From NCBI RefSeq assembly GCF_022810765.1, contig NZ_CP094494.1, positions 1,674,001 through 1,738,000 on the forward strand: a DNA stretch of 64,000 bases, read 5' to 3'. The stretch comes from Winogradskyella sp. MH6 (GTDB taxonomy: Bacteria; Bacteroidota; Bacteroidia; Flavobacteriales; Flavobacteriaceae). Each line of letters opens with the position of its first letter. Position 1 is the first letter of the stretch. Of the stretch, positions 5,507-23,095 are shown piece after piece. The position numbers and the translations under genes were made by a program. The notes under the pieces were generated by a model. The model made no database searches, had not been told where the DNA came from, and saw nothing but the letters and a program-made list of their open reading frames with translations.

Positions 5507-5860
5507 ATGAAAACAACATTAAAGCTCGAAGAACTCGGTATGTTTGTTTTAGGTATTTTCCTATTTACTCAATTGAGTTATGCTTGGTGGTGGTTTTTGG
5601 TGCTAATACTTTTGCCAGATATTGGTATGCTTGGGTATCTTATAAATACAAAAGTAGGAGCTTTAACGTACAATATTTTTCATCATAAAGGTCTGGCAGT
5701 TGTTATTTACCTTATCGGCATATATTTTGACATGGAATTATTGAAGCTCATAGGAATAATATTATTTTCTCATGCTTCATTAGATAGAATTTTCGGTTAC
5801 GGATTAAAGTTTAAAGACAATTTTAAAAACACACATCTGGGCGAAATAGGAAATAATTAA
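5507..5860 (+). CDS. DUF4260 family small membrane protein
   Basis: 117 residues with about three hydrophobic helices (LGMFVLGIFLFTQLSYAWWWF, LLPDIGMLGYLINTKVG, GLAVVIYLIGIYF) and the family signature near the C-terminus, HASLDRIFGYGLKF...THLGEIG. The conserved Asp, His and Arg in these segments suggest more than a structural role, but no function is known for the family. It is two bases upstream of the DUF4230 gene and is likely in one operon with it. Confidence 0.8.
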   Translation: MKTTLKLEELGMFVLGIFLFTQLSYAWWWFLVLILLPDIGMLGYLINTKVGALTYNIFHHKGLAVVIYLIGIYFDMELLKLIGIILFSHASLDRIFGYGLKFKDNFKNTHLGEIGNN

Positions 5861-15892: not shown

Positions 15893-15957
15893 AATAGTTA
15901 TTTGATATCTAACAAAAGTAAGAATAATGAAAGGAATATTTTCTTAAATAAAACCTA

Positions 15958-15987
15958 TTTGAATATTGAAACTATTGTTTATATTTG
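15958..15987 (+). promoter_or_regulatory. tRNA-Leu promoter
   Basis: TTTG (15958-15961), an 18-base spacer and TATATTTG (15980-15987), ten bases before the tRNA 5' end. This is the clearest match in the window to the Bacteroidota -33/-7 consensus and serves as an internal reference for the others. Confidence 0.85.
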
Positions 15988-15997
15988 CAGTCCTTTT

Positions 15998-16079
15998 GCA
16001 GGCGTGGTGGAATTGGTAGACACGCTAGACTTAGGATCTAGTGCCGCGAGGTGTGCGAGTTCGAGTCTCGCCGCCTGTA
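15998..16079 (+). tRNA. tRNA-Leu (anticodon UAG)
   Basis: 82 bases. Acceptor stem GCAGGCG pairs with CGCCTGT (first pair G-U), discriminator A. The anticodon stem CTAGA/TCTAG holds loop CTTAGGA with anticodon TAG. A long variable arm (class II, as for Leu) follows. The T arm GCGAG-TTCGAGT-CTCGC is regular. CCA is not encoded. Confidence 0.95.
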
Positions 16080-16086
16080 CAGAGAA

Positions 16087-16117
16087 AAAGCCGAAACGAA
16101 AGTTTCGGCTTTTTTTA
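16087..16117 (+). terminator. terminator after tRNA-Leu
   Basis: AAAGCCGAAAC (16087-16097) pairs with GTTTCGGCTTT (16102-16112) around GAAA, followed by TTTT. An 11-bp perfect stem with a GNRA-type loop, eight bases beyond the tRNA. Confidence 0.9.
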
Positions 16118-16167
16118 TGGCTTGATATTTCTTTTTGTAATAAAACTTTTTAAACGCTTAAAACTGG

Positions 16168-16204
16168 GTAAAAAAGTATCAATTGGGTAAAATATACCCA
16201 ATTG
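16168..16204. promoter_or_regulatory. candidate activator site upstream of the sensor-kinase operon
   Basis: Holds GTAAAAAAGTATCA (16168-16181), the same 14 bases as in the palindrome after the response-regulator gene. It then has an inverted repeat with arms CAATTGGGTA (16180-16189) and TACCCAATTG (16195-16204). The shared half-site looks like CAATTGsGTAAA. About 65 bases further down, TGGAAGAATCTTTGT (16268-16282) is a poor sigma-54 -24/-12 match (GT instead of GC at -12). Confidence 0.55.
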
Positions 16205-16314
16205 GATGTCTAAGTGAAATACTTTAAGATCAACAAAATCAGTTATATATGGTGTTTTGTTAAAGATTGGAAGAATCTTTGTGCCTTTATAATGTTATTT
16301 GAAAATGAAACACT

Positions 16315-16926
16315 ATGTCTGCAAAAACTTCACCTTCCAACCGTATTGATATTGGTCTTGCACTTTTTGTTGTTTTTTTATTAGTCTTTGCTACCAATAG
16401 ACTGGATAAACGGCATTTTAATACAGTTCAGGATTCATTAACTACCGTTTATAATGATAGAGTTGTAGCGCAAGATTACGTCTACAAAATGAGCAATGTA
16501 ATGTCAAAAAAGCATCTTAAAATCCTAGACGCATCTTTATCATATAGTCAATCGAACTTAAATGAAGAGTTTATTGATTTAATGGACAAGTTCTCTACTA
16601 CTAAATTTACTAGCAAAGAATCACTCACTTTTGAAGATTTAAAGAAAAAATTCAACGCTCTTATGCAACTAGAAAGCAAATCAACAGCTCTTATTGATAA
16701 AGACCGGCAAGTTCAGTTCATAGATGCTATAAAAACAGATTTAAATAACCTATCTTTAATACAGGTCTCAGAAAGTAAATATAAAGTTGGTTTAGCACAA
16801 CGTAGTTTAGACACTAAAGACCTTATGTCTACCTTAGAAATTGTATTTTTAGTAATAATAGGGTTTACAGTGCAGTTTGCTTTGTTTTATAGGGTGAAAA
16901 AATCTATGACAAGAGAAAATAATTAA
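16315..16926 (+). CDS. membrane four-helix-bundle sensor-like protein
   Basis: 203 residues. One helix near the N-terminus (14-27), a helical extracytoplasmic domain of about 150 residues, and a second helix (174-195) followed by a short basic tail. The layout matches MCP-type four-helix-bundle sensory domains, but there is no HAMP, kinase or methyl-accepting part. It is 21 bases upstream of a soluble histidine kinase, so it may be that kinase's membrane sensor on a separate chain. No clear Shine-Dalgarno sequence, as usual in this phylum. Confidence 0.65.
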   Translation: MSAKTSPSNRIDIGLALFVVFLLVFATNRLDKRHFNTVQDSLTTVYNDRVVAQDYVYKMSNVMSKKHLKILDASLSYSQSNLNEEFIDLMDKFSTTKFTSKESLTFEDLKKKFNALMQLESKSTALIDKDRQVQFIDAIKTDLNNLSLIQVSESKYKVGLAQRSLDTKDLMSTLEIVFLVIIGFTVQFALFYRVKKSMTRENN

Positions 16927-16947
16927 TAGATAGAAGACATTATTTAA

Positions 16948-18039
16948 ATGAACAGCACAGAGTCTGCATTAAAAGAACGTATTAAGGAGTTGACATGCTT
17001 GCATGAAGTCTCTTCTATCATAGCTAATACTGATTTTGATTTAATTGAAGACACAATAAAAGCCATAACATTTAGTTTGAAAAAGGCGTTTCAGTATCCT
17101 AAAAAGACCGAAGTTCTAATTCGGGTTGAAGAAATGTCTATAGGTACAAAAGAATTTGAAAAAGATAATTTCACATTAAGTTCCGATATAGAAATATTTA
17201 ATGCACCTAAAGGAGAAATTTTGGTGCGTTTACATGTGTCGGAAAAAGAAACGTTAAGCTTTTTAAAGGAAGAGAAACTACTGTTAGATAATATAGCCTT
17301 AAAAATTGGGGCACTGTTTGAGCGTATTGAAATACAAAAAAATGAAGCCTCGCTTAAACGACAGATGGAACATGCAGATCGTTTAAGTATTTTGGGAGAG
17401 ATAACAGCAGGTATTGCTCATGAATTAAATACACCTTTAGCAAACATTTTAGGCTTTGGTGAGCTTTTGAAAGAAGATTTAAAAACAAACAAAAAGGCCA
17501 TTTCAGATTTAGATAAAATTATTCAAAATGCCATATTCTCTAGAGAGGTGGTTAAAAAATTGATGTTTTTTGCTTGCGAAATGCCACAAGAAAAAGAGCT
17601 TGTCAATCTTATTCCTAATATAAAGAATGCCATTAAACTCTTAGATGCTTCATTTAAAAAAGAACATGTTAAGTACCAGTTAAATATTAAAGAAGACGAG
17701 TTGTGGTTAAGAGCAGATCCAATACAGCTTACACAAATTATATTTAACCTTCTCATTAATGCTATATATTTTTCTCCAAAAAACAGTGTGGTAAGTATTG
17801 AAGCGTCTAGCACCAAAAAAGATGTTGTTTTAAAAATATCAGATGAAGGAGTTGGCTTTAAAATAGAGAATCTCGATAAGGTGTTTCAGCCCTTTTTTAC
17901 CACTAAGCCACAAGGAGATGGCTCTGGTCTTGGGTTAAGTGTTGTTCATGGTATAGTGGCATCGCATAGAGGAACAATTGAAGCAAAAAATAATACCAAA
18001 AAAGGTGCTACCTTTATTGTGAGGCTGCCAAAAGATTAA
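16948..18039 (+). CDS. soluble sensor histidine kinase (NtrB-like)
   Basis: 363 residues without membrane segments. The N-terminal 130 residues look GAF-like. The dimerisation domain has H158 in ITAGIAHELNTPLANILG. The ATPase domain has an N box (QIIFNLLINAIYFSP), G1 (ISDEGVGF), F box (FQPFFTTKPQGDGSGLGL) and G2. It phosphorylates the response regulator encoded 6 bases downstream. Sensing probably depends on the membrane protein encoded upstream and/or a GAF ligand; the signal is unknown. Confidence 0.88.
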   Translation: MNSTESALKERIKELTCLHEVSSIIANTDFDLIEDTIKAITFSLKKAFQYPKKTEVLIRVEEMSIGTKEFEKDNFTLSSDIEIFNAPKGEILVRLHVSEKETLSFLKEEKLLLDNIALKIGALFERIEIQKNEASLKRQMEHADRLSILGEITAGIAHELNTPLANILGFGELLKEDLKTNKKAISDLDKIIQNAIFSREVVKKLMFFACEMPQEKELVNLIPNIKNAIKLLDASFKKEHVKYQLNIKEDELWLRADPIQLTQIIFNLLINAIYFSPKNSVVSIEASSTKKDVVLKISDEGVGFKIENLDKVFQPFFTTKPQGDGSGLGLSVVHGIVASHRGTIEAKNNTKKGATFIVRLPKD

Positions 18040-18044
18040 AAAAT

Positions 18045-19373
18045 ATGCAATTACGACAAGAAAATATATTGGTTGTAGATGACGATATACATATTATAGA
18101 GTTACTACAACGTCATTTACAATCGTGGAAATTTCATGTGTACAAGGCTATTTCTGTAAAGGAAGCCGTAACAATCTTAAAAGACACAAGAATAGATTTA
18201 TTGATTACAGATTTAAAGATGCCAGAGGTTGATGGCTTTGAGCTTATCAAGTTTGTATCAGAGCACTACCCTAAATTACCAAAACTAACGATTACAGGCT
18301 ATCCTTCTGTACAAGATTCTTTAGCAGCTATAAAATCTGGAGTTACAGACTATCTTACAAAACCATTTACAAAAGACGAATTAAAAAAAGCTATAGATAA
18401 GGCGTTACATAAAGGTAATTCGCATGCACAAACAAAAAAAACTGAACTAGAAAAGACTAATAATGCCTATGGTGAAATTATAGGTAATTCTGAACAGATT
18501 AATGATGTTATTCAGATTATTGAGCGTGTAAAAAATAATAAAGCCACAGTTTTTATTAAAGGTGAAAGTGGTACCGGAAAAGAGTTGGTAGCAAGGGCGA
18601 TTCATTATCAAGGTAAATTTTCTAGAGCACCTTTTATTGCCGTAAATTGTGGTGCTATACCCGAAAATTTGCTTGAAGCCGAATTGTTTGGTTACGTTAA
18701 AGGTGCCTTTACAGGTGCAGAAACTAATAGAGATGGTTTTTTTCAGGCGGCAAACGGCGGAACTATTTTTTTAGACGAAATTGGTAATGCTTCATTAGCA
18801 GTGCAATCACGATTATTGCGTGTGCTTCAAGAAAAAGAAGTTGTAAAAGTGGGTGCTACAAAAGCCGAACAGATCGATGTTAGAATCGTTGCTGCAACCA
18901 ATAGTGACCTCAGAGAAATGATTAAAAAACAAACTTTTAGAGAAGATTTGTTTTACCGACTCACTGTGGTAGAAATAGAAATAGCACCTTTAAGAGACCG
19001 AAAAGATGATATACCGCTTTTGGTAGATAAGTTTTTGTTTAAATATGGTATAGAATATAAAGACCGTTTTATAAAAATTGCACCAGAAGCATTAAACATT
19101 TTAATGAGATACGATTGGCCAGGAAACATAAGGGAGCTTGAAAATATAGTACAGCGTGCTGTTATAATGAGCGATAAAGTAATTGAGGCAGAGTCGCTAC
19201 CAAGTCATTTAAAGTATGTTATAGATATGCCTTCGGATGCGTTAGTACCTCTAAAAGAAATTGAGCGTAGATATATAGAAAAAGTTTTAAGAGCAACAGG
19301 AAACAACAAAACTAAAGCTGCAGAAATACTTCAAATAGATCGAAAAACCATACGTCAAAAACTAGCCGATTAA
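18045..19373 (+). CDS. NtrC-family sigma-54-dependent response regulator
   Basis: 442 residues in the classic three-part order. Receiver domain with acidic DDD at 12-14, phospho-acceptor Asp56 (LLITDLKMP) and Lys106. AAA+ domain with Walker A GESGTGKE (173-180), the sigma-54 contact loop GAFTGA (220-225) and Walker B TIFLDEIG (240-247). Fis-type helix-turn-helix at the very end (NNKTKAAEILQIDRKTIRQKL). Once phosphorylated it should hydrolyse ATP to open sigma-54 promoters. A 40-bp palindrome starts 12 bases after its stop and a sigma-54 promoter lies further on, which makes the downstream glutamate dehydrogenase operon the obvious target. Confidence 0.93.
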   Translation: MQLRQENILVVDDDIHIIELLQRHLQSWKFHVYKAISVKEAVTILKDTRIDLLITDLKMPEVDGFELIKFVSEHYPKLPKLTITGYPSVQDSLAAIKSGVTDYLTKPFTKDELKKAIDKALHKGNSHAQTKKTELEKTNNAYGEIIGNSEQINDVIQIIERVKNNKATVFIKGESGTGKELVARAIHYQGKFSRAPFIAVNCGAIPENLLEAELFGYVKGAFTGAETNRDGFFQAANGGTIFLDEIGNASLAVQSRLLRVLQEKEVVKVGATKAEQIDVRIVAATNSDLREMIKKQTFREDLFYRLTVVEIEIAPLRDRKDDIPLLVDKFLFKYGIEYKDRFIKIAPEALNILMRYDWPGNIRELENIVQRAVIMSDKVIEAESLPSHLKYVIDMPSDALVPLKEIERRYIEKVLRATGNNKTKAAEILQIDRKTIRQKLAD

Positions 19374-19385
19374 AAGCTTAAATAC

Positions 19386-19425
19386 ACTGATACTTTTTTA
19401 CGCAATTGCGTAAAAAAGTATCAGT
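19386..19425. promoter_or_regulatory. 40-bp perfect palindrome, likely NtrC-type enhancer site
   Basis: A 40-base inverted repeat with no spacer and no mismatch, centred between 19405 and 19406. The core is TTACGCAATTGCGTAA, flanked by A/T runs and GTATCAGT/ACTGATAC ends. It repeats the 14 bases found at 16168-16181. Its centre is about 130 bp upstream of the start expected for the sigma-54 promoter at 19515. The RNA could also form an 18-bp hairpin, so a terminator role is possible. However, a separate good terminator follows at 19451. Confidence 0.7.
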
Positions 19426-19450
19426 ACTATTTTTAATTAAATTATTATTG

Positions 19451-19495
19451 AAACTCTCAAAGTCCTTTTGAATAAAGGGTTTTGAGAGTTTTTTT
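19451..19495 (+). terminator. terminator of the sensor-kinase/regulator operon
   Basis: AAACTCTCAAA (19451-19461) pairs with TTTGAGAGTTT (19481-19491), followed by more Ts. An 11-bp stem with a 19-base loop. It separates the regulator gene from the sigma-54 promoter 20 bases downstream. Confidence 0.85.
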
Positions 19496-19514
19496 GTTGT
19501 TGGTTAATTTGTTT

Positions 19515-19529
19515 TGGCATATGCATTGC
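19515..19529 (+). promoter_or_regulatory. sigma-54 (-24/-12) promoter
   Basis: TGGCATATGCATTGC fits TGGCAC-N5-TTGC with the key GG and GC pairs at exact spacing. Transcription should start near 19541, 20 bases before the first small gene. It lies directly downstream of a gene for a sigma-54 activator and its likely binding palindrome. Confidence 0.75.
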
Positions 19530-19560
19530 CTTATACAATACAATAAAAATAGCTTTTTAA

Positions 19561-19737
19561 ATGAACCACATAAATATTTGCCCAAGTTGTGTACATCTTA
19601 AAAATTGTGTGCTAACTGCCCAAAAAGACAAAGTATGGTCTTGCAGTGAGTACGAAGAGGAAGATTTGGATTCTAAAGTAATAATGAAAGTAAAAACACC
19701 TCAAAATAAAAAAAGACAAGAATTAGAACTGGTTTAA
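19561..19737 (+). CDS. 58-residue four-cysteine small protein
   Basis: Begins MNHINICPSCVHLKNC and continues to SCSEYEEED, giving C7-x2-C10-x5-C16-x11-C28, a likely zinc (or iron) knuckle, then a basic tail. The ATG sits about 20 bases downstream of the predicted sigma-54 transcription start, which supports it as a real gene. I recall similar short proteins in Flavobacteriaceae, but I give no function. It is the first gene of the glutamate dehydrogenase operon. Confidence 0.7.
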   Translation: MNHINICPSCVHLKNCVLTAQKDKVWSCSEYEEEDLDSKVIMKVKTPQNKKRQELELV

Positions 19738-19756
19738 ATTTTAAAATAGTAGCGTT

Positions 19757-19885
19757 ATGATTTTTAATGCCCTAGTTGCAATATTGAATACTAAAAATTC
19801 GGTAAAGAAAAATAAGTCTTTAAGAAGTAAGTACTTAAACGAAAAGTATCAGGAAAGATCTATCTCTAACAGATACTTTAAGTAG
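19757..19885 (+). CDS. 42-residue basic small protein
   Basis: Begins MIFNALVAILNTKNSVKKN and ends with SISNRYFK. A short hydrophobic start is followed by a strongly basic, helical part. It lies 19 bases after the four-cysteine protein and 49 bases before glutamate dehydrogenase, in the same direction. Position and composition make it a plausible gene; no family recognised. Confidence 0.5.
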   Translation: MIFNALVAILNTKNSVKKNKSLRSKYLNEKYQERSISNRYFK

Positions 19886-19934
19886 TTGTATTTACTCACA
19901 GTAATAAAAAAACAGTTAATATTAATTATAAAGA

Positions 19935-21239
19935 ATGTCAACATTAACAGCAGAGCTTAAAGAAAAAGCTAAAAAGACACCTCAAAGAGGTATGATGGAT
20001 AATGTAATGGAGCAGTTTGAGAATGCTGCAACCCAAATCAATTTACATCCAAATATTAAAAAAATATTAAGCATAACCAACAATGAAATCATTGTAAACT
20101 TTCCTGTAAAAATGGATAATGGTGATGTAGAAATATTTACAGGTTATAGAGTGCAACACAACAATGCATTAGGGCCATATAAAGGTGGCTTACGTTATCA
20201 CCCAACAGTAGATATAGATGCAGCTAGAGCATTAGCTATGTGGATGACCTGGAAAACCTCCTTAGCAGGTTTGCCTTATGGAGGTGGAAAAGGAGGTATA
20301 AAAATAGATCCATCTAAATACTCTAAAACCGAGTTAGAGCGTATAACAAGACGTTTTACGTTTGCTTTAGCAGATAATATTGGGCCAGAGCACGATATAC
20401 CTGCGCCAGATGTTAATACCAATAGTCAAACTATGGCATGGATGGCAGATACTTACATGAGTACAAGACCACCAGCAGAGCGTACAGCAAATCAGCATGT
20501 CGTTACTGGGAAGCCAGCCGGAAGTGGAGGACTCGAAGGTCGTGATAGAGCTACTGGTTATGGTGTGTATTTGTCTATAAAGTTTTGGGCAGAAAAGAAT
20601 AACGAAAGTTTAAAAGGCAAAAAATACATCGTACAAGGTTTTGGTAACGTTGGCTATTGGGCAGCACATTTCTTAGAAAAAGATGGAGCCATTTTAGTAG
20701 GTGTACAAGATGCCTTTGGAAGTGTTCAAAATCAAGAAGGTATCAATGTTGAAGATTTGTTTAACTACATGCAAATTAACGACGGTAGCATTGCAGATTT
20801 TCCAAAAGCTAATGCGGTAGATAAAGATACGTTCTTTGCGCTAGAATGTGATATCTGTATTCCTGCAGCTCTAGGAAATCAAATCACAAAAGAAAATGCA
20901 CCAAGCATTAAGGCAAAATTAATTGCAGAAGGTGCAAACGGACCAACAAATGTTGAAGGAGAAAAAATCTTAATAGAGAGCGGAGTAACCATCATACCAG
21001 ATATTCTGTGTAACTCTGGTGGAGTTGTGGGTAGCTATTTTGAATGGTTGCAAAATCGTAACGGAGAGCTATGGCAGTTAGACGAGGTTATGGCAAAGCT
21101 AGATAAAAAGCTAAAAGAATCTTTCGATAAAGTTTACGATTATGCAACTGTAGAAGGGGTAGATATGAGAACTGCTGCATTTAGTATTGCTATTAAACGT
21201 ATAGAAAAAGCATATATAGAAAGAGGTATTTTTCCTTAA
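19935..21239 (+). CDS. gdhA: glutamate dehydrogenase
   Basis: 434 residues. Glu/Leu/Phe/Val dehydrogenase with the substrate domain motif LPYGGGKGGIKIDP (catalytic Lys119), upstream GPYKGGLRYHP, PAPDVNT and the Rossmann motif VQGFGNVGYWAAHFL. It interconverts glutamate and 2-oxoglutarate plus ammonia. Length and the short N-terminus match the hexameric enzyme used mainly in glutamate breakdown. NAD versus NADP preference cannot be read reliably by eye. It lies in the operon driven by the sigma-54 promoter, which fits control by nitrogen or stationary phase. Confidence 0.92.
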   Translation: MSTLTAELKEKAKKTPQRGMMDNVMEQFENAATQINLHPNIKKILSITNNEIIVNFPVKMDNGDVEIFTGYRVQHNNALGPYKGGLRYHPTVDIDAARALAMWMTWKTSLAGLPYGGGKGGIKIDPSKYSKTELERITRRFTFALADNIGPEHDIPAPDVNTNSQTMAWMADTYMSTRPPAERTANQHVVTGKPAGSGGLEGRDRATGYGVYLSIKFWAEKNNESLKGKKYIVQGFGNVGYWAAHFLEKDGAILVGVQDAFGSVQNQEGINVEDLFNYMQINDGSIADFPKANAVDKDTFFALECDICIPAALGNQITKENAPSIKAKLIAEGANGPTNVEGEKILIESGVTIIPDILCNSGGVVGSYFEWLQNRNGELWQLDEVMAKLDKKLKESFDKVYDYATVEGVDMRTAAFSIAIKRIEKAYIERGIFP

Positions 21240-21257
21240 TAAATAAAGTCTAGGTAA

Positions 21258-21677
21258 ATGAAATACGGAAGTTTAATATTAGAGAAGAAAGAGTATGTGT
21301 ATTTAAAGCGCATACTCAATATCTCTGGTTATGCTGAAGATCATGAAAGGCAAGAGTGTTTGATGAAGCTTTTTGAAGAGTTAAAATCTGCACATATTGT
21401 AGACGATGACCAAATGCCAGAGGATGTTGTAAGATTTAATAGTACGGTTACGGTAGCATACGAAAACGGTGTTAAAAAGACGGTGCAGGTTGTAATACCT
21501 TCTGAGAGGGACTTTAGAAATAACAAAATATCAGTTTTAACTCCTTTAGGATCTGCTTTAATTGGCTATTCTAAAGACGATAGTGTTATATGGAGTTTTC
21601 CACAGGGAAATGAAGAGATTCTTATTTCTGAAGTTAAACAAGAAAGAGAACTAGATAAGACTAACTTTTCTATTTAA
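21258..21677 (+). CDS. GreA/GreB C-terminal (Rnk-like) factor
   Basis: 139 residues. An N-terminal helical part that is too short for a full GreA coiled coil, then the GreA/GreB C-terminal FKBP-like domain (VRFNSTVTVAYENGVKKTVQVVIPSERDFRNNKISVLTPLGSALIGYSKDDSVIWSFPQG). The signature TPLGSALIG-W-FP is family typical. Rnk-type proteins bind RNA polymerase without cleaving RNA. It follows glutamate dehydrogenase by 18 bases. Confidence 0.82.
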   Translation: MKYGSLILEKKEYVYLKRILNISGYAEDHERQECLMKLFEELKSAHIVDDDQMPEDVVRFNSTVTVAYENGVKKTVQVVIPSERDFRNNKISVLTPLGSALIGYSKDDSVIWSFPQGNEEILISEVKQERELDKTNFSI

Positions 21678-21685
21678 ATATTATT

Positions 21686-22105
21686 ATGAATTCAATAGAA
21701 GATAAAATATACAATCATGATACTGATCTAGATATCACTCATAAGATTAATTCTATGGAGTTAAACAATTGGATAAACCATCTTCAGTACATAAAGAAGG
21801 AGCTTAGCAATTTTATAAGTATTTGTACGAAGGAGCTAAACAGTAAGTTAGAAAGTCCTGTTGTAATCCAAAGATTTAAGAAAAAGCAAAAAGAAAACGA
21901 TACATTACTTAATGCGCTTTTGCAATACAATGGTGCAAGAGCTAAGATTATAGAGTGTGAAGATACCGAGTGCGACATGGTGTACATATCAGAACACGAG
22001 AGTTATAGAAGAAGCTATATCTATCATTTAGATAAATATAGAAGACTTAAAGATGAGTTTTTTAACAGTATAAAAGGAAAATTTACACTATTAAAAATAA
22101 GCTAA
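21686..22105 (+). CDS. helical protein of unknown function, copy 1
   Basis: 139 residues, nearly all helix-forming, charged, no signal peptide. ELNNWINHLQYIKKELSNFI near the start and YIYHLDKYRRLKDEFFNSI at the end align with equivalent segments of the next gene (EIELWLYNLEIINEDLNHFK, YIDYMQSYTKFKNEVYRVL). The two genes are therefore diverged tandem duplicates. No known family recognised. Position after the Rnk-like gene suggests a part in the same response. Confidence 0.7.
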   Translation: MNSIEDKIYNHDTDLDITHKINSMELNNWINHLQYIKKELSNFISICTKELNSKLESPVVIQRFKKKQKENDTLLNALLQYNGARAKIIECEDTECDMVYISEHESYRRSYIYHLDKYRRLKDEFFNSIKGKFTLLKIS

Positions 22106-22134
22106 TACTAGCCGCTGTTTAATAAGTGTACTAA

Positions 22135-22506
22135 ATGTATAAAGTAGATGAGCATAGAAGATTGTGCCTGTATAAAGATCTAAAAGAGATCGAATTATGG
22201 TTATACAATCTAGAAATTATAAACGAAGACTTAAATCATTTCAAAACCCTAGAAAAACAGTTGATTAAAAGCGATTCGTTAGCCTATAAAATAAAAGCAA
22301 ACCAGAGGACAAATGTACTGTTGATGGCAGGCTTATGTAAGTACGAAAACGAATTAAAAACCGAATTGGAATACAGTAAAACCAAGTATGATAACGTTAG
22401 AGTTAAGCACCATATGCAAAAACGTAAAAGTTATATAGACTACATGCAGAGTTATACCAAATTTAAAAATGAGGTATATCGGGTTTTATTAATGTTTAAG
22501 CGATAG
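22135..22506 (+). CDS. helical protein of unknown function, copy 2
   Basis: 123 residues, paralogue of the preceding gene. Shared features are ELxLWLxxLxxIxxDL, then an xNVLLMAxLxKYxxE stretch, then a basic helix with YxDYMQxYxKFKxEVY. Predicted coiled-coil or helical bundle, cytoplasmic. It is the last gene of the operon; a strong hairpin follows 112 bases later. Confidence 0.68.
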   Translation: MYKVDEHRRLCLYKDLKEIELWLYNLEIINEDLNHFKTLEKQLIKSDSLAYKIKANQRTNVLLMAGLCKYENELKTELEYSKTKYDNVRVKHHMQKRKSYIDYMQSYTKFKNEVYRVLLMFKR

Positions 22507-22617
22507 AAAAAATAAAGCCTAAAATAACTTAATCTTTATATAGAATCACAAAGCCGAGTTTGGTTGATTATAATTTGATTGATTGCAAAAGCTAGATTTA
22601 TCTTAGGTTTTGTGTGC

Positions 22618-22651
22618 AAACCGCAAAGTTAGTTGTCTTTGCGGTTTCTTT
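22618..22651 (+). terminator. terminator of the glutamate dehydrogenase operon
   Basis: AAACCGCAAAG (22618-22628) pairs with CTTTGCGGTTT (22637-22647), 11 bp perfect with an 8-base loop, followed by CTTT. The stem is strong but the T run is short. Confidence 0.75.
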
Positions 22652-22860
22652 AAAGAATAGGTAGCAATGTTAATATGTTTTTTGGCGTATTTAAACAGCT
22701 GCAGTTAAGTTTAATGTTAATAATACATCAGTAATGTGAAAATATAAACAGTACTTATATTAGATCTAGATTTTAATATTTGTTAGTTAGCCGAAATGTG
22801 GAAATCTTATGCTTTAATTGTTAAGAAGTTTTAATTTATACGATGATACATTTCAATTAC

Positions 22861-22895
22861 AACCGCAAGAGTCTTAATATTCTTGCGGTTATTTG
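22861..22895 (+). terminator. second stem-loop, possible sRNA terminator
   Basis: AACCGCAAGA (22861-22870) pairs with TCTTGCGGTT (22881-22890) with a 10-base loop, followed by ATTTGTT. Its sequence is close to the stem at 22618 although the flanks differ. Confidence 0.6.
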
Positions 22896-23095
22896 TTAGG
22901 CGACTTAACAAACTAAAAGAGTTAGATTTTTAGGTGCTTAAAAGAGTATCCTAAATATTCAATCTCTACCTAAAAACTTTTAATGCAACTATGTGAATTG
23001 ACAAAAACTCACATATTTTTTATTAATTTACCAACCAAACCAATGCTATTTTAACAAATTCATAATCCGAAAATAGCAATTATCATATTTATTTA

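What the first reader, a model, noticed from the sequence alone, without database searches (positions are those of the whole stretch)
16168..19529. NtrC-type operon with a 40-bp palindrome and sigma-54 promoter before glutamate dehydrogenase
A perfect 40-bp palindrome (19386-19425) lies right after an NtrC-family gene, about 130 bp upstream of TGGCATATGCATTGC (19515-19529). A 14-base piece of it (GTAAAAAAGTATCA) and related CAATTGsGTA arms occur again before the operon (16168-16204). This is the classic layout of enhancer plus -24/-12 promoter and predicts autoregulation plus control of two tiny proteins, glutamate dehydrogenase, an Rnk-like factor and two unknown proteins.
Basis: partly seen in the sequence, partly recalled or inferred. 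Interest (0 to 1): 0.75.

Follow-up and report, generated by a model that had tools for sequence, protein, structure and literature searches.

The report
Sigma-54 switch before glutamate dehydrogenase operon
A marine bacterium carries, right behind a sensor-regulator gene pair, two side-by-side regulator landing sites and a sigma-54 promoter that very probably switch on a glutamate dehydrogenase operon, and the same layout, with the distance apparently kept in whole turns of the DNA helix, recurs in dozens of related genera.

Summary
The 40-bp palindrome (19386-19425) is exact, but what is conserved is a tandem pair of 17-bp palindromes (TGRKWM-N5-KWMYCA) starting 19 bp apart: 19388-19404 and 19407-19423. 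A second pair lies before the sensor operon (16165-16200). TGGCATATGCATTGC begins 91 nt after the first pair; rpoN is present. In 69 loci, nearly all Flavobacteriaceae, the order kinase-regulator-[pair]-[-24/-12]-Cys protein-GDH-Gre is largely kept. Of 80 pairs, 66 are followed by a sigma-54 match of at least 10 bits, all at 65, 76-78, 86-92 or 99-100 nt, about a helical turn apart. Among 41 congeners, full-length pairs were found in the 9 with the regulator and in none of the 32 without; 7 of those 32 have the same GDH with neither pair nor promoter beside it. The regulator is an AtoC/ZraR/NtrC-like enhancer-binding protein, not NtrC proper. A nitrogen role is untested; other apparent targets (ferritin-like Dps, NhaA, MscS, transhydrogenase) favour an energy or stress response. 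Autoregulation is plausible, but the window's own upstream promoter is weak. No binding or expression was measured.

The parts
16165..16181 (+). upstream pair, site 1: TGGGTAAAAAAGTATCA
   Evidence: 17-bp matrix 15.5 bits, built without window rows
16184..16200 (+). upstream pair, site 2: TGGGTAAAATATACCCA
   Evidence: 18.4 bits, best score in the 64-kb window; starts 19 bp after site 1
16268..16283 (+). candidate weak -24/-12 promoter of the sensor operon (TGGAAGAATCTTTGTG)
   Evidence: 67 nt after the pair, 4.0 bits only; similar sequence at the like place in L076, by eye
16315..16926 (+). 203-aa membrane protein, 4HB_MCP-type sensory bundle
   Evidence: Pfam PF12729 27.2 bits, cut-off 27
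16948..18039 (+). histidine kinase, 363 aa
   Evidence: HisKA and HATPase_c; best NCBIfam match AtoS, below cut-off
18045..19373 (+). enhancer-binding response regulator, 442 aa (receiver, AAA+ with GAFTGA, Fis-type HTH)
   Evidence: PF00072, PF00158, PF02954; relatives of it in the 68 other loci analysed
19386..19425 (.). perfect 40-bp palindrome
19388..19404 (+). enhancer site A: TGATACTTTTTTACGCA
19407..19423 (+). enhancer site B: TGCGTAAAAAAGTATCA
19450..19492 (+). rho-independent-type terminator of the sensor operon
   Evidence: a simple script sees a terminator-like hairpin in 28 of 61 spacers
19515..19529 (+). -24/-12 promoter TGGCATATGCATTGC
19561..19737 (+). 58-aa protein with four invariant Cys (C-x2-C-x5-C-x2-T ... 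SCS)
   Evidence: alignment of 31 rows
19757..19885 (+). 42-aa protein
   Evidence: tblastn matches in other loci
19935..21239 (+). glutamate dehydrogenase, RocG/GudB/archaeal-like class
   Evidence: PF00208, PF02812; best-scoring solved structures are those of 1b3b, 1b26, 1gtm and kin
21258..21677 (+). Rnk-like GreA/GreB C-terminal-domain protein
   Evidence: PF01272; NCBIfam nucleoside diphosphate kinase regulator 89.5 bits, cut-off 109
21686..22105 (+). 139-aa three-helix protein, unknown
   Evidence: AlphaFold2 mean pLDDT 85.7
22135..22506 (+). 123-aa protein, distant paralogue of the 139-aa one
   Evidence: hhalign probability 98.3, E 2.1e-14

Best explanation
The region is a self-contained sigma-54 circuit. 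A membrane 4HB protein senses something and, through a histidine kinase that by eye has no membrane span of its own, leads to phosphorylation of the response regulator at 18045-19373 (inferred). Two regulator dimers sit side by side on the two 17-bp palindromes that make up the 40-bp palindrome (inferred from sequence; not measured), which seeds an AAA+ hexamer. That hexamer touches RNA polymerase-sigma54 waiting at 19515-19529, over a loop whose length is held to whole helical turns, and opens the promoter of the Cys58-p42-GDH-Gre-u139-u123 operon. A terminator inside the loop separates the sensor operon from the effector operon. A second pair before the sensor operon probably feeds back on it through a weaker promoter. 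Physiology is the least certain step: I favour a starvation, energy or redox response in which a catabolic-type glutamate dehydrogenase and an RNA-polymerase-binding Rnk-like factor are made.
For: Element found within 300 nt of the regulator stop in 62 of 69 loci; the weakest of the 62 scores 12.8 bits, the best of the other 7 is -3.4. Pair within 2200 nt downstream of the regulator with a promoter of at least 8 bits in 58 of 65 loci, four having been left out. Of 67 site pairs within 60 bp over 916 kb (both sites at least 9 bits), 60 start exactly 19 bp apart; one shuffle of each locus gave no pair (38 elements had trained the matrix). Of 80 pairs, 66 have a best promoter of at least 10 bits 20-260 nt on, all at 65, 76-78, 86-92 or 99-100 nt; shuffled spacers reach 10 bits in 34 of 1600. 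Shifts between distance classes need at least 7 changes on the regulator tree, at least 5 forced by supported branches. Full-length pairs in 9 of 9 regulator-bearing and 0 of 32 regulator-free congeners. In 7 regulator-free congeners the same GDH has no pair, promoter or partner genes beside it. Genes that are not orthologues of this operon (ferritin-like Dps, MscS, AlaDh/PNT transhydrogenase-like, a 120-126-aa secreted-looking protein) have the same pair and distance. rpoN present.
Against: No binding, transcript or phenotype data. The sigma-54 matrix is handmade from a recalled consensus, and the distance windows were set after seeing the data. TGGYAY-N5-TTGC is not clearly enriched in this genome: 39 hits against 19 for the reversed pattern, and 35 against 21 with a wrong spacing. 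Four of 80 pairs have no promoter of 6 bits, and one of these is the window's own upstream pair; one of the 76 at 6 bits (L076, upstream pair, 56 nt) is out of phase. The upstream pair is not found as a whole by either model (best partial E 0.098; 0.34). Downstream of the regulator no pair passed the threshold in L040, L078, L079, L087, L094, L096 and L099, and in L077 only far off at +4680. Presence of the pair in most regulator-bearing congeners is partly by construction, since several were training rows; only absence elsewhere, plus G060 and the window, is independent. Five of the 32 regulator-free genomes are under 90% complete, the search scored 150 candidates per genome with stricter filters, and two of the 32 (G012, G025) gave short partial matches. 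One of the distance shifts rests on L037, a very long branch.
Confidence: 0.87

Rival explanations
1. The palindrome is a transcription terminator or RNA hairpin of the regulator gene, and its likeness to an enhancer is incidental.
For: The scan scores it as terminator-like: 18 pairs counted and a T-rich tail. As a hairpin, 72.3% of cells pair over 37 relatives, above shuffled and slid controls.
Against: A second terminator-like hairpin follows at 19450-19492. In relatives three inner columns of each site do not pair in 20, 21 and 25 of 37 rows while G3/C36 never vary; dyad DNA sites pair symmetrically without any RNA. The same pair occurs before the sensor operon and before ferritin-like, MscS and transhydrogenase-like genes, at a fixed distance from sigma-54 promoters; the upstream pair as a whole is not a palindrome.
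Confidence: 0.04
2. Another DNA-binding protein, for instance a paralogous enhancer-binding protein or a repressor, uses the pair.
For: The genome has two more matches to the regulator at E 1e-60. Proximity of regulator gene and site is circumstantial.
Against: Of the 32 regulator-free congeners 31 have such paralogues at E 1e-60 or better, in the rows shown mostly 34-48% identical, but none gave a full-length pair. Pair-to-promoter phasing is what an enhancer-binding protein needs.
Confidence: 0.08
3. It is the nitrogen-regulation (NtrB/NtrC) system of this bacterium, acting.
For: A GDH is the main enzyme controlled; sigma-54 is linked to nitrogen metabolism in Pseudomonadota (start of the abstract of PMC12316311).
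Against: Regulator and kinase score best, below cut-off, with AtoC/AtoS, not NtrC. The GDH is of the RocG/GudB/archaeal class and a second GDH, 35% identical, lies elsewhere in the genome. GDH was not found in 6 of 68 such loci. Other apparent targets are ferritin-like Dps, NhaA, MscS and transhydrogenase-like genes.
Confidence: 0.12
4. Chance: the promoter match is not used and the operon is read from a housekeeping Bacteroidota promoter.
For: The bare -24/-12 pattern is about as common as expected.
Against: Position and phase relative to the pair over dozens of loci; its absence at seven regulator-free GDH genes.
Confidence: 0.03

Closest known systems
Bacillus subtilis RocR/SigL control of rocG
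   Same: A sigma-54 activator turns on a catabolic glutamate dehydrogenase (passages of PMC4348106); NAD-specific entries 3k92/3k8z, which I recall as the B. subtilis enzymes, are among the solved relatives.
   Different: RocR responds to arginine metabolites and, as I recall, has no partner kinase; the enhancer lies downstream of the gene (title in the reference list of PMC4348106). Here a kinase-response-regulator pair uses an upstream tandem enhancer and the operon carries Gre-like and unknown genes.
AtoSC and ZraSR of E. coli
   Same: AtoC is the nearest named family to the regulator and AtoS to the kinase; ZraR and ZraS are each third; same receiver-AAA+-Fis layout.
   Different: Scores below the curated cut-offs; a separate 4HB membrane protein is encoded; I saw no acetoacetate or zinc genes among those identified at the locus.
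CbrB of Pseudomonas putida
   Same: Several subsites placed on one face of the helix upstream of sigma-54 promoters (passages of PMC6296734).
   Different: [quoted passage not shown] here two palindromes at 19 bp and a quantised promoter distance.
NtrC at glnAp2
   Same: Two dimer sites form an enhancer that meets sigma-54 polymerase by looping (recalled).
   Different: Different site sequence, different regulator subfamily, different genes.

Membership tests
Sigma-54 enhancer-binding response regulator | Receiver + AAA+ sigma-54 domain + Fis-type HTH | tested here: met
   PF00072, PF00158, PF02954 over cut-off
Sigma-54 enhancer-binding response regulator | GAFTGA loop and Walker motifs | tested here: met
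   GESGTGKE, GAFTGA and DEIG in the translation, by eye
Sigma-54 enhancer-binding response regulator | rpoN in the genome | tested here: met
   PF04552 at 178 bits
Sigma-54 enhancer-binding response regulator | Palindromic enhancer upstream of -24/-12 | tested here: met
   (sequence only)
Sigma-54 enhancer-binding response regulator | Binding, ATPase and promoter opening | not testable with these tools
   needs biochemistry
NtrC (NR(I)) proper | Score above the curated NtrC cut-off | tested here: not met
   403.9 of 558.6 bits
AtoC proper | Score above the curated AtoC cut-off | tested here: not met
   413.6 of 714 bits
Rnk | Score above the curated cut-off of nucleoside diphosphate kinase regulator | tested here: not met
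   89.5 of 109 bits; GreA/GreB C-domain met
Intrinsic terminator (for the palindrome) | Hairpin kept by compensatory change while sequence drifts | tested here: inconclusive
   72.3% cells paired, above controls, but inner columns often unpaired and one outer pair invariant

The most novel reading that the evidence does not exclude
The enhancer of this circuit is phase-locked: across Flavobacteriaceae the distance from the tandem site to the -24/-12 element changes only by whole helical turns (about 65, 77, 89 or 100 nt), at orthologous and non-orthologous promoters alike. That would mean a short, stiff loop in which the activator hexamer must meet the polymerase in one fixed orientation, unlike the loose-distance picture of bacterial enhancers, and it gives a rule by which targets can be read from sequence.
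Probability: 0.6. Interest if true: 0.6.

Novelty: new member of a known kind. Interest (0 to 1): 0.5.

Why it matters
As far as I recall, few enhancer-binding circuits of Bacteroidota have been worked out at the bench; my seven searches of open papers listed none on this site or operon. The site rule found here gives a testable target map for a regulator present in about 35 named genera (titles), links a catabolic-type GDH and an Rnk-like factor to one signal, and offers natural variants in which whole-turn spacing can be tested. The signal, the 139/123-aa paralogues and the four-Cys protein are open questions with clear handles.

Tried and rejected
A pattern with the wrong -24/-12 spacing was sent first and kept only as a control. 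Four other places in the genome with partial matches to model R1 (C1:940225, 2069306, 2498037, 1382212) were fetched and held no pair with a combined score of 13 bits. Window 5560-5581, a partial match, is not part of a pair that reaches 17 bits. Structure of the 58-aa protein: no confident model, mean pLDDT 52.6. Fold search with the 139-aa model: no match at E 0.001 or better; helical proteins of many kinds at E 0.3 and above. Rfam at gathering thresholds over 15900-23000: only a tRNA. The 276-aa protein behind several operons starts like a universal stress protein (recalled), but the one tested has no Pfam match at 1e-4, so I do not rest on it. Rows dropped before counts: L101 and L102 (regulator cut by contig end), L104 and L106-L119 (proteobacterial, 38-43%), L038 and L039 (37-38%), L033 (same genome as L063); in the tree also L105, L072, L078, L087.
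Full report
WHAT IS THERE. The window lies in a 3.5-Mb single-contig genome (C1:1674001-1738000); its closest named relative by this locus is Winogradskyella marincola (regulator 93% identical, L076). Three co-directional genes, a 4HB_MCP-type membrane protein (16315-16926), a histidine kinase (16948-18039) and a sigma-54 response regulator (18045-19373), are followed by the 40-bp palindrome (19386-19425), a terminator hairpin (19450-19492), TGGCATATGCATTGC (19515-19529) and the genes for a 58-aa four-Cys protein, a 42-aa protein, GDH, a Rnk-like protein and two unknown proteins. rpoN is present. The promoter pattern by itself is hardly more than chance would give; the case rests on comparison.

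COMPARISON SET. The regulator was sought in 60 genomes, the window's own included, and in one genome per species of GTDB release 220 (409 places encode a relative, the best 80 kept). I analysed 69 loci: the window, five and 63 of the 80; the others were cut off, proteobacterial or duplicates. Of the 68 other than the window, tblastn found the kinase in 67, GDH in 62, the Gre-like protein in 61 and the four-Cys protein in 59, within the 6.7-13.5 kb held for each. The 4HB protein was found by blastp in 15 and is thus the variable part.

THE ENHANCER. Iterative motif fitting in the 300 nt after the regulator stop found one 39-bp element in 62 of 69 loci. It resolves into two 17-bp palindromes, consensus TGRKWM-N5-KWMYCA, with 2 bp between them. 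In the window they are TGATACTTTTTTACGCA and TGCGTAAAAAAGTATCA; because each is the reverse complement of the other, the whole is a perfect palindrome, which it is not in W. marincola (row L076). A matrix built from 38 elements without the window gave its two best scores in the 64-kb window to 16165-16181 and 16184-16200, the pair before the sensor operon. Of 67 site pairs within 60 bp in 916 kb (both sites at least 9 bits), 60 start 19 bp apart; one shuffle of each locus had none. A model of 37 elements without the window finds 19387-19425 as the best place in the genome, E 1.4e-6, the next being 0.06; a second model of 49 elements in both orientations, again without the window, puts it first too, E 2.9e-4.

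THE PROMOTER AND THE PHASE. With a handmade sigma-54 matrix (consensus recalled), the best -24/-12 sequence 20-260 nt after each of 80 pairs was taken, on the regulator's strand. 66 reach 10 bits, and all 66 begin at 65, 76-78, 86-92 or 99-100 nt after the pair; at 8 bits 73 of 73, and at 6 bits 75 of 76, fall in the windows 64-67, 75-79, 86-92 and 98-101. The exception is the upstream pair of L076 (56 nt, 6.3 bits). Four pairs have nothing of 6 bits: the window's upstream pair (4.0), and pairs upstream of the kinase in L032, L034 and L035. Shuffled spacers reach 10 bits in 34 of 1600. In a wider scan of 400 nt to either side, same strand, 70 matches of at least 10 bits lay at +65 to +100 and none elsewhere. 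Most of these promoters are orthologous, so I counted changes on a regulator tree of 58 loci: 49 in the 86-92 class, 6 in 98-101, 3 in 74-80; at least 7 changes between classes, at least 5 forced by supported branches; one of them rests on L037, a very long branch. Promoters of other genes obey the same distances: MscS (L048, 86), ferritin-like Dps (L088, 88; a gene like it in L155, 87), AlaDh/PNT transhydrogenase-like (L095, 86), a small secreted-looking protein (L034/L035, 87; L070, 88; L077, 86). The distance windows were set after seeing the data.

LINK TO THE REGULATOR. In 41 genomes of the genus, 9 hold the regulator at 78% identity or more. Full-length pairs (model R2, trained without the window, E 0.05) were found in those 9 and in 0 of the other 32; two of the 32 (G012, G025) gave partial matches of 28 and 23 bp that look like coding sequence by eye. 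Several of the 9 had given training rows, so absence in the 32 is the informative half; 5 of the 32 are under 90% complete, and only 150 candidates per genome were scored. Seven of the 32 keep the same GDH, 78-82% identical and uninterrupted; from about 3 kb before to 1.5-2.6 kb behind it, on its strand, there is no pair of 15 bits, no sigma-54 match of 13 bits and none of the partner genes. In 23 genomes reached through loci and searched whole, 19 gave matches at E 0.03; every listed place but one lies in the locus already held, and most of those were training rows. The odd one, in G068 about 19 kb from the locus's own pair, precedes a gene like the Dps-like one of L088. Weaker targets may be missed.

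UPSTREAM PAIR. Pairs before the 4HB(-NhaA)-HK-RR operon occur in the window and in 11 of the 15 other loci with 4HB: L034, L035, L040, L070, L076-L079, L087, L088 and L099. Their promoters are weaker (window 4.0 bits, L034 3.6, L040 10.2, L070 13.4). TGGAAGA.T.TTTGTG is shared by the window and L076. Feedback is therefore likely but less sure than effector control.

PROTEINS. Regulator: AtoC/ZraR/NtrC-like, below the curated cut-off of each of the 25 families shown; nearest solved relatives are entries named NtrC family, such as 4l4u and 1ny5. GDH: the best-scoring solved relatives (1b3b, 1b26, 1gtm) are, as I recall, Thermotoga and archaeal enzymes; NAD-specific 3k92 follows, and entries named NADP-specific score 164-192 bits against 392 for the best. 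A second GDH, 35% identical, lies at C1:1034026. The 139- and 123-aa proteins are distant paralogues; the first is a confident three-helix bundle without a telling structural match. The 58-aa protein has four invariant cysteines and SCS in all 31 rows aligned, suggesting a metal site (inference).

HOW IT WORKS. Shown by sequence: paired sites, promoter, phase, co-occurrence. Inferred: phosphorylation, dimer occupancy of each 17-mer, hexamer formation, looping, activation. Suggested only: that the signal is starvation, energy or redox stress. The nitrogen reading is not excluded.

LITERATURE. Seen as search listings or passages only: PMC12316311 (passages; it names GDH among sigma-54 targets in Bacillota, and the passages seen do not mention this operon), PMC6296734 (passages), PMC7057263 (passages), PMC4348106 (passages). 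Seven searches listed no paper on this site or operon; the library holds open papers only.

Noticed in passing
window 21686-22105 and 22135-22506: The two unknown proteins are distant paralogues of each other; the first is predicted as a three-helix bundle of unknown role.
   Followed up: yes
window 19757-19885: A conserved 42-aa ORF between the four-Cys protein and GDH; likely a real small gene.
   Followed up: partly
L141-L147: The same GDH without regulator, enhancer or sigma-54 promoter in seven congeners: a natural before/after comparison.
   Followed up: yes
G031:C7:91835-93114: The corresponding GDH gene is seen as two matches, each with a stop inside.
   Followed up: no
L095 1699-1736, L048 2676-2713, L088 1767-1804, L155 1501: Same tandem sites before transhydrogenase-like, MscS-type channel and ferritin-like Dps genes in other genera: perhaps a wider stress-type regulon.
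   Followed up: partly
regulator tree: The window and W. marincola regulators branch apart from those of other Winogradskyella, and 32 of 41 congeners lack the gene: loss or transfer.
   Followed up: no
window 15998-16079: tRNA gene (Rfam tRNA) just upstream of the sensor operon.
   Followed up: no
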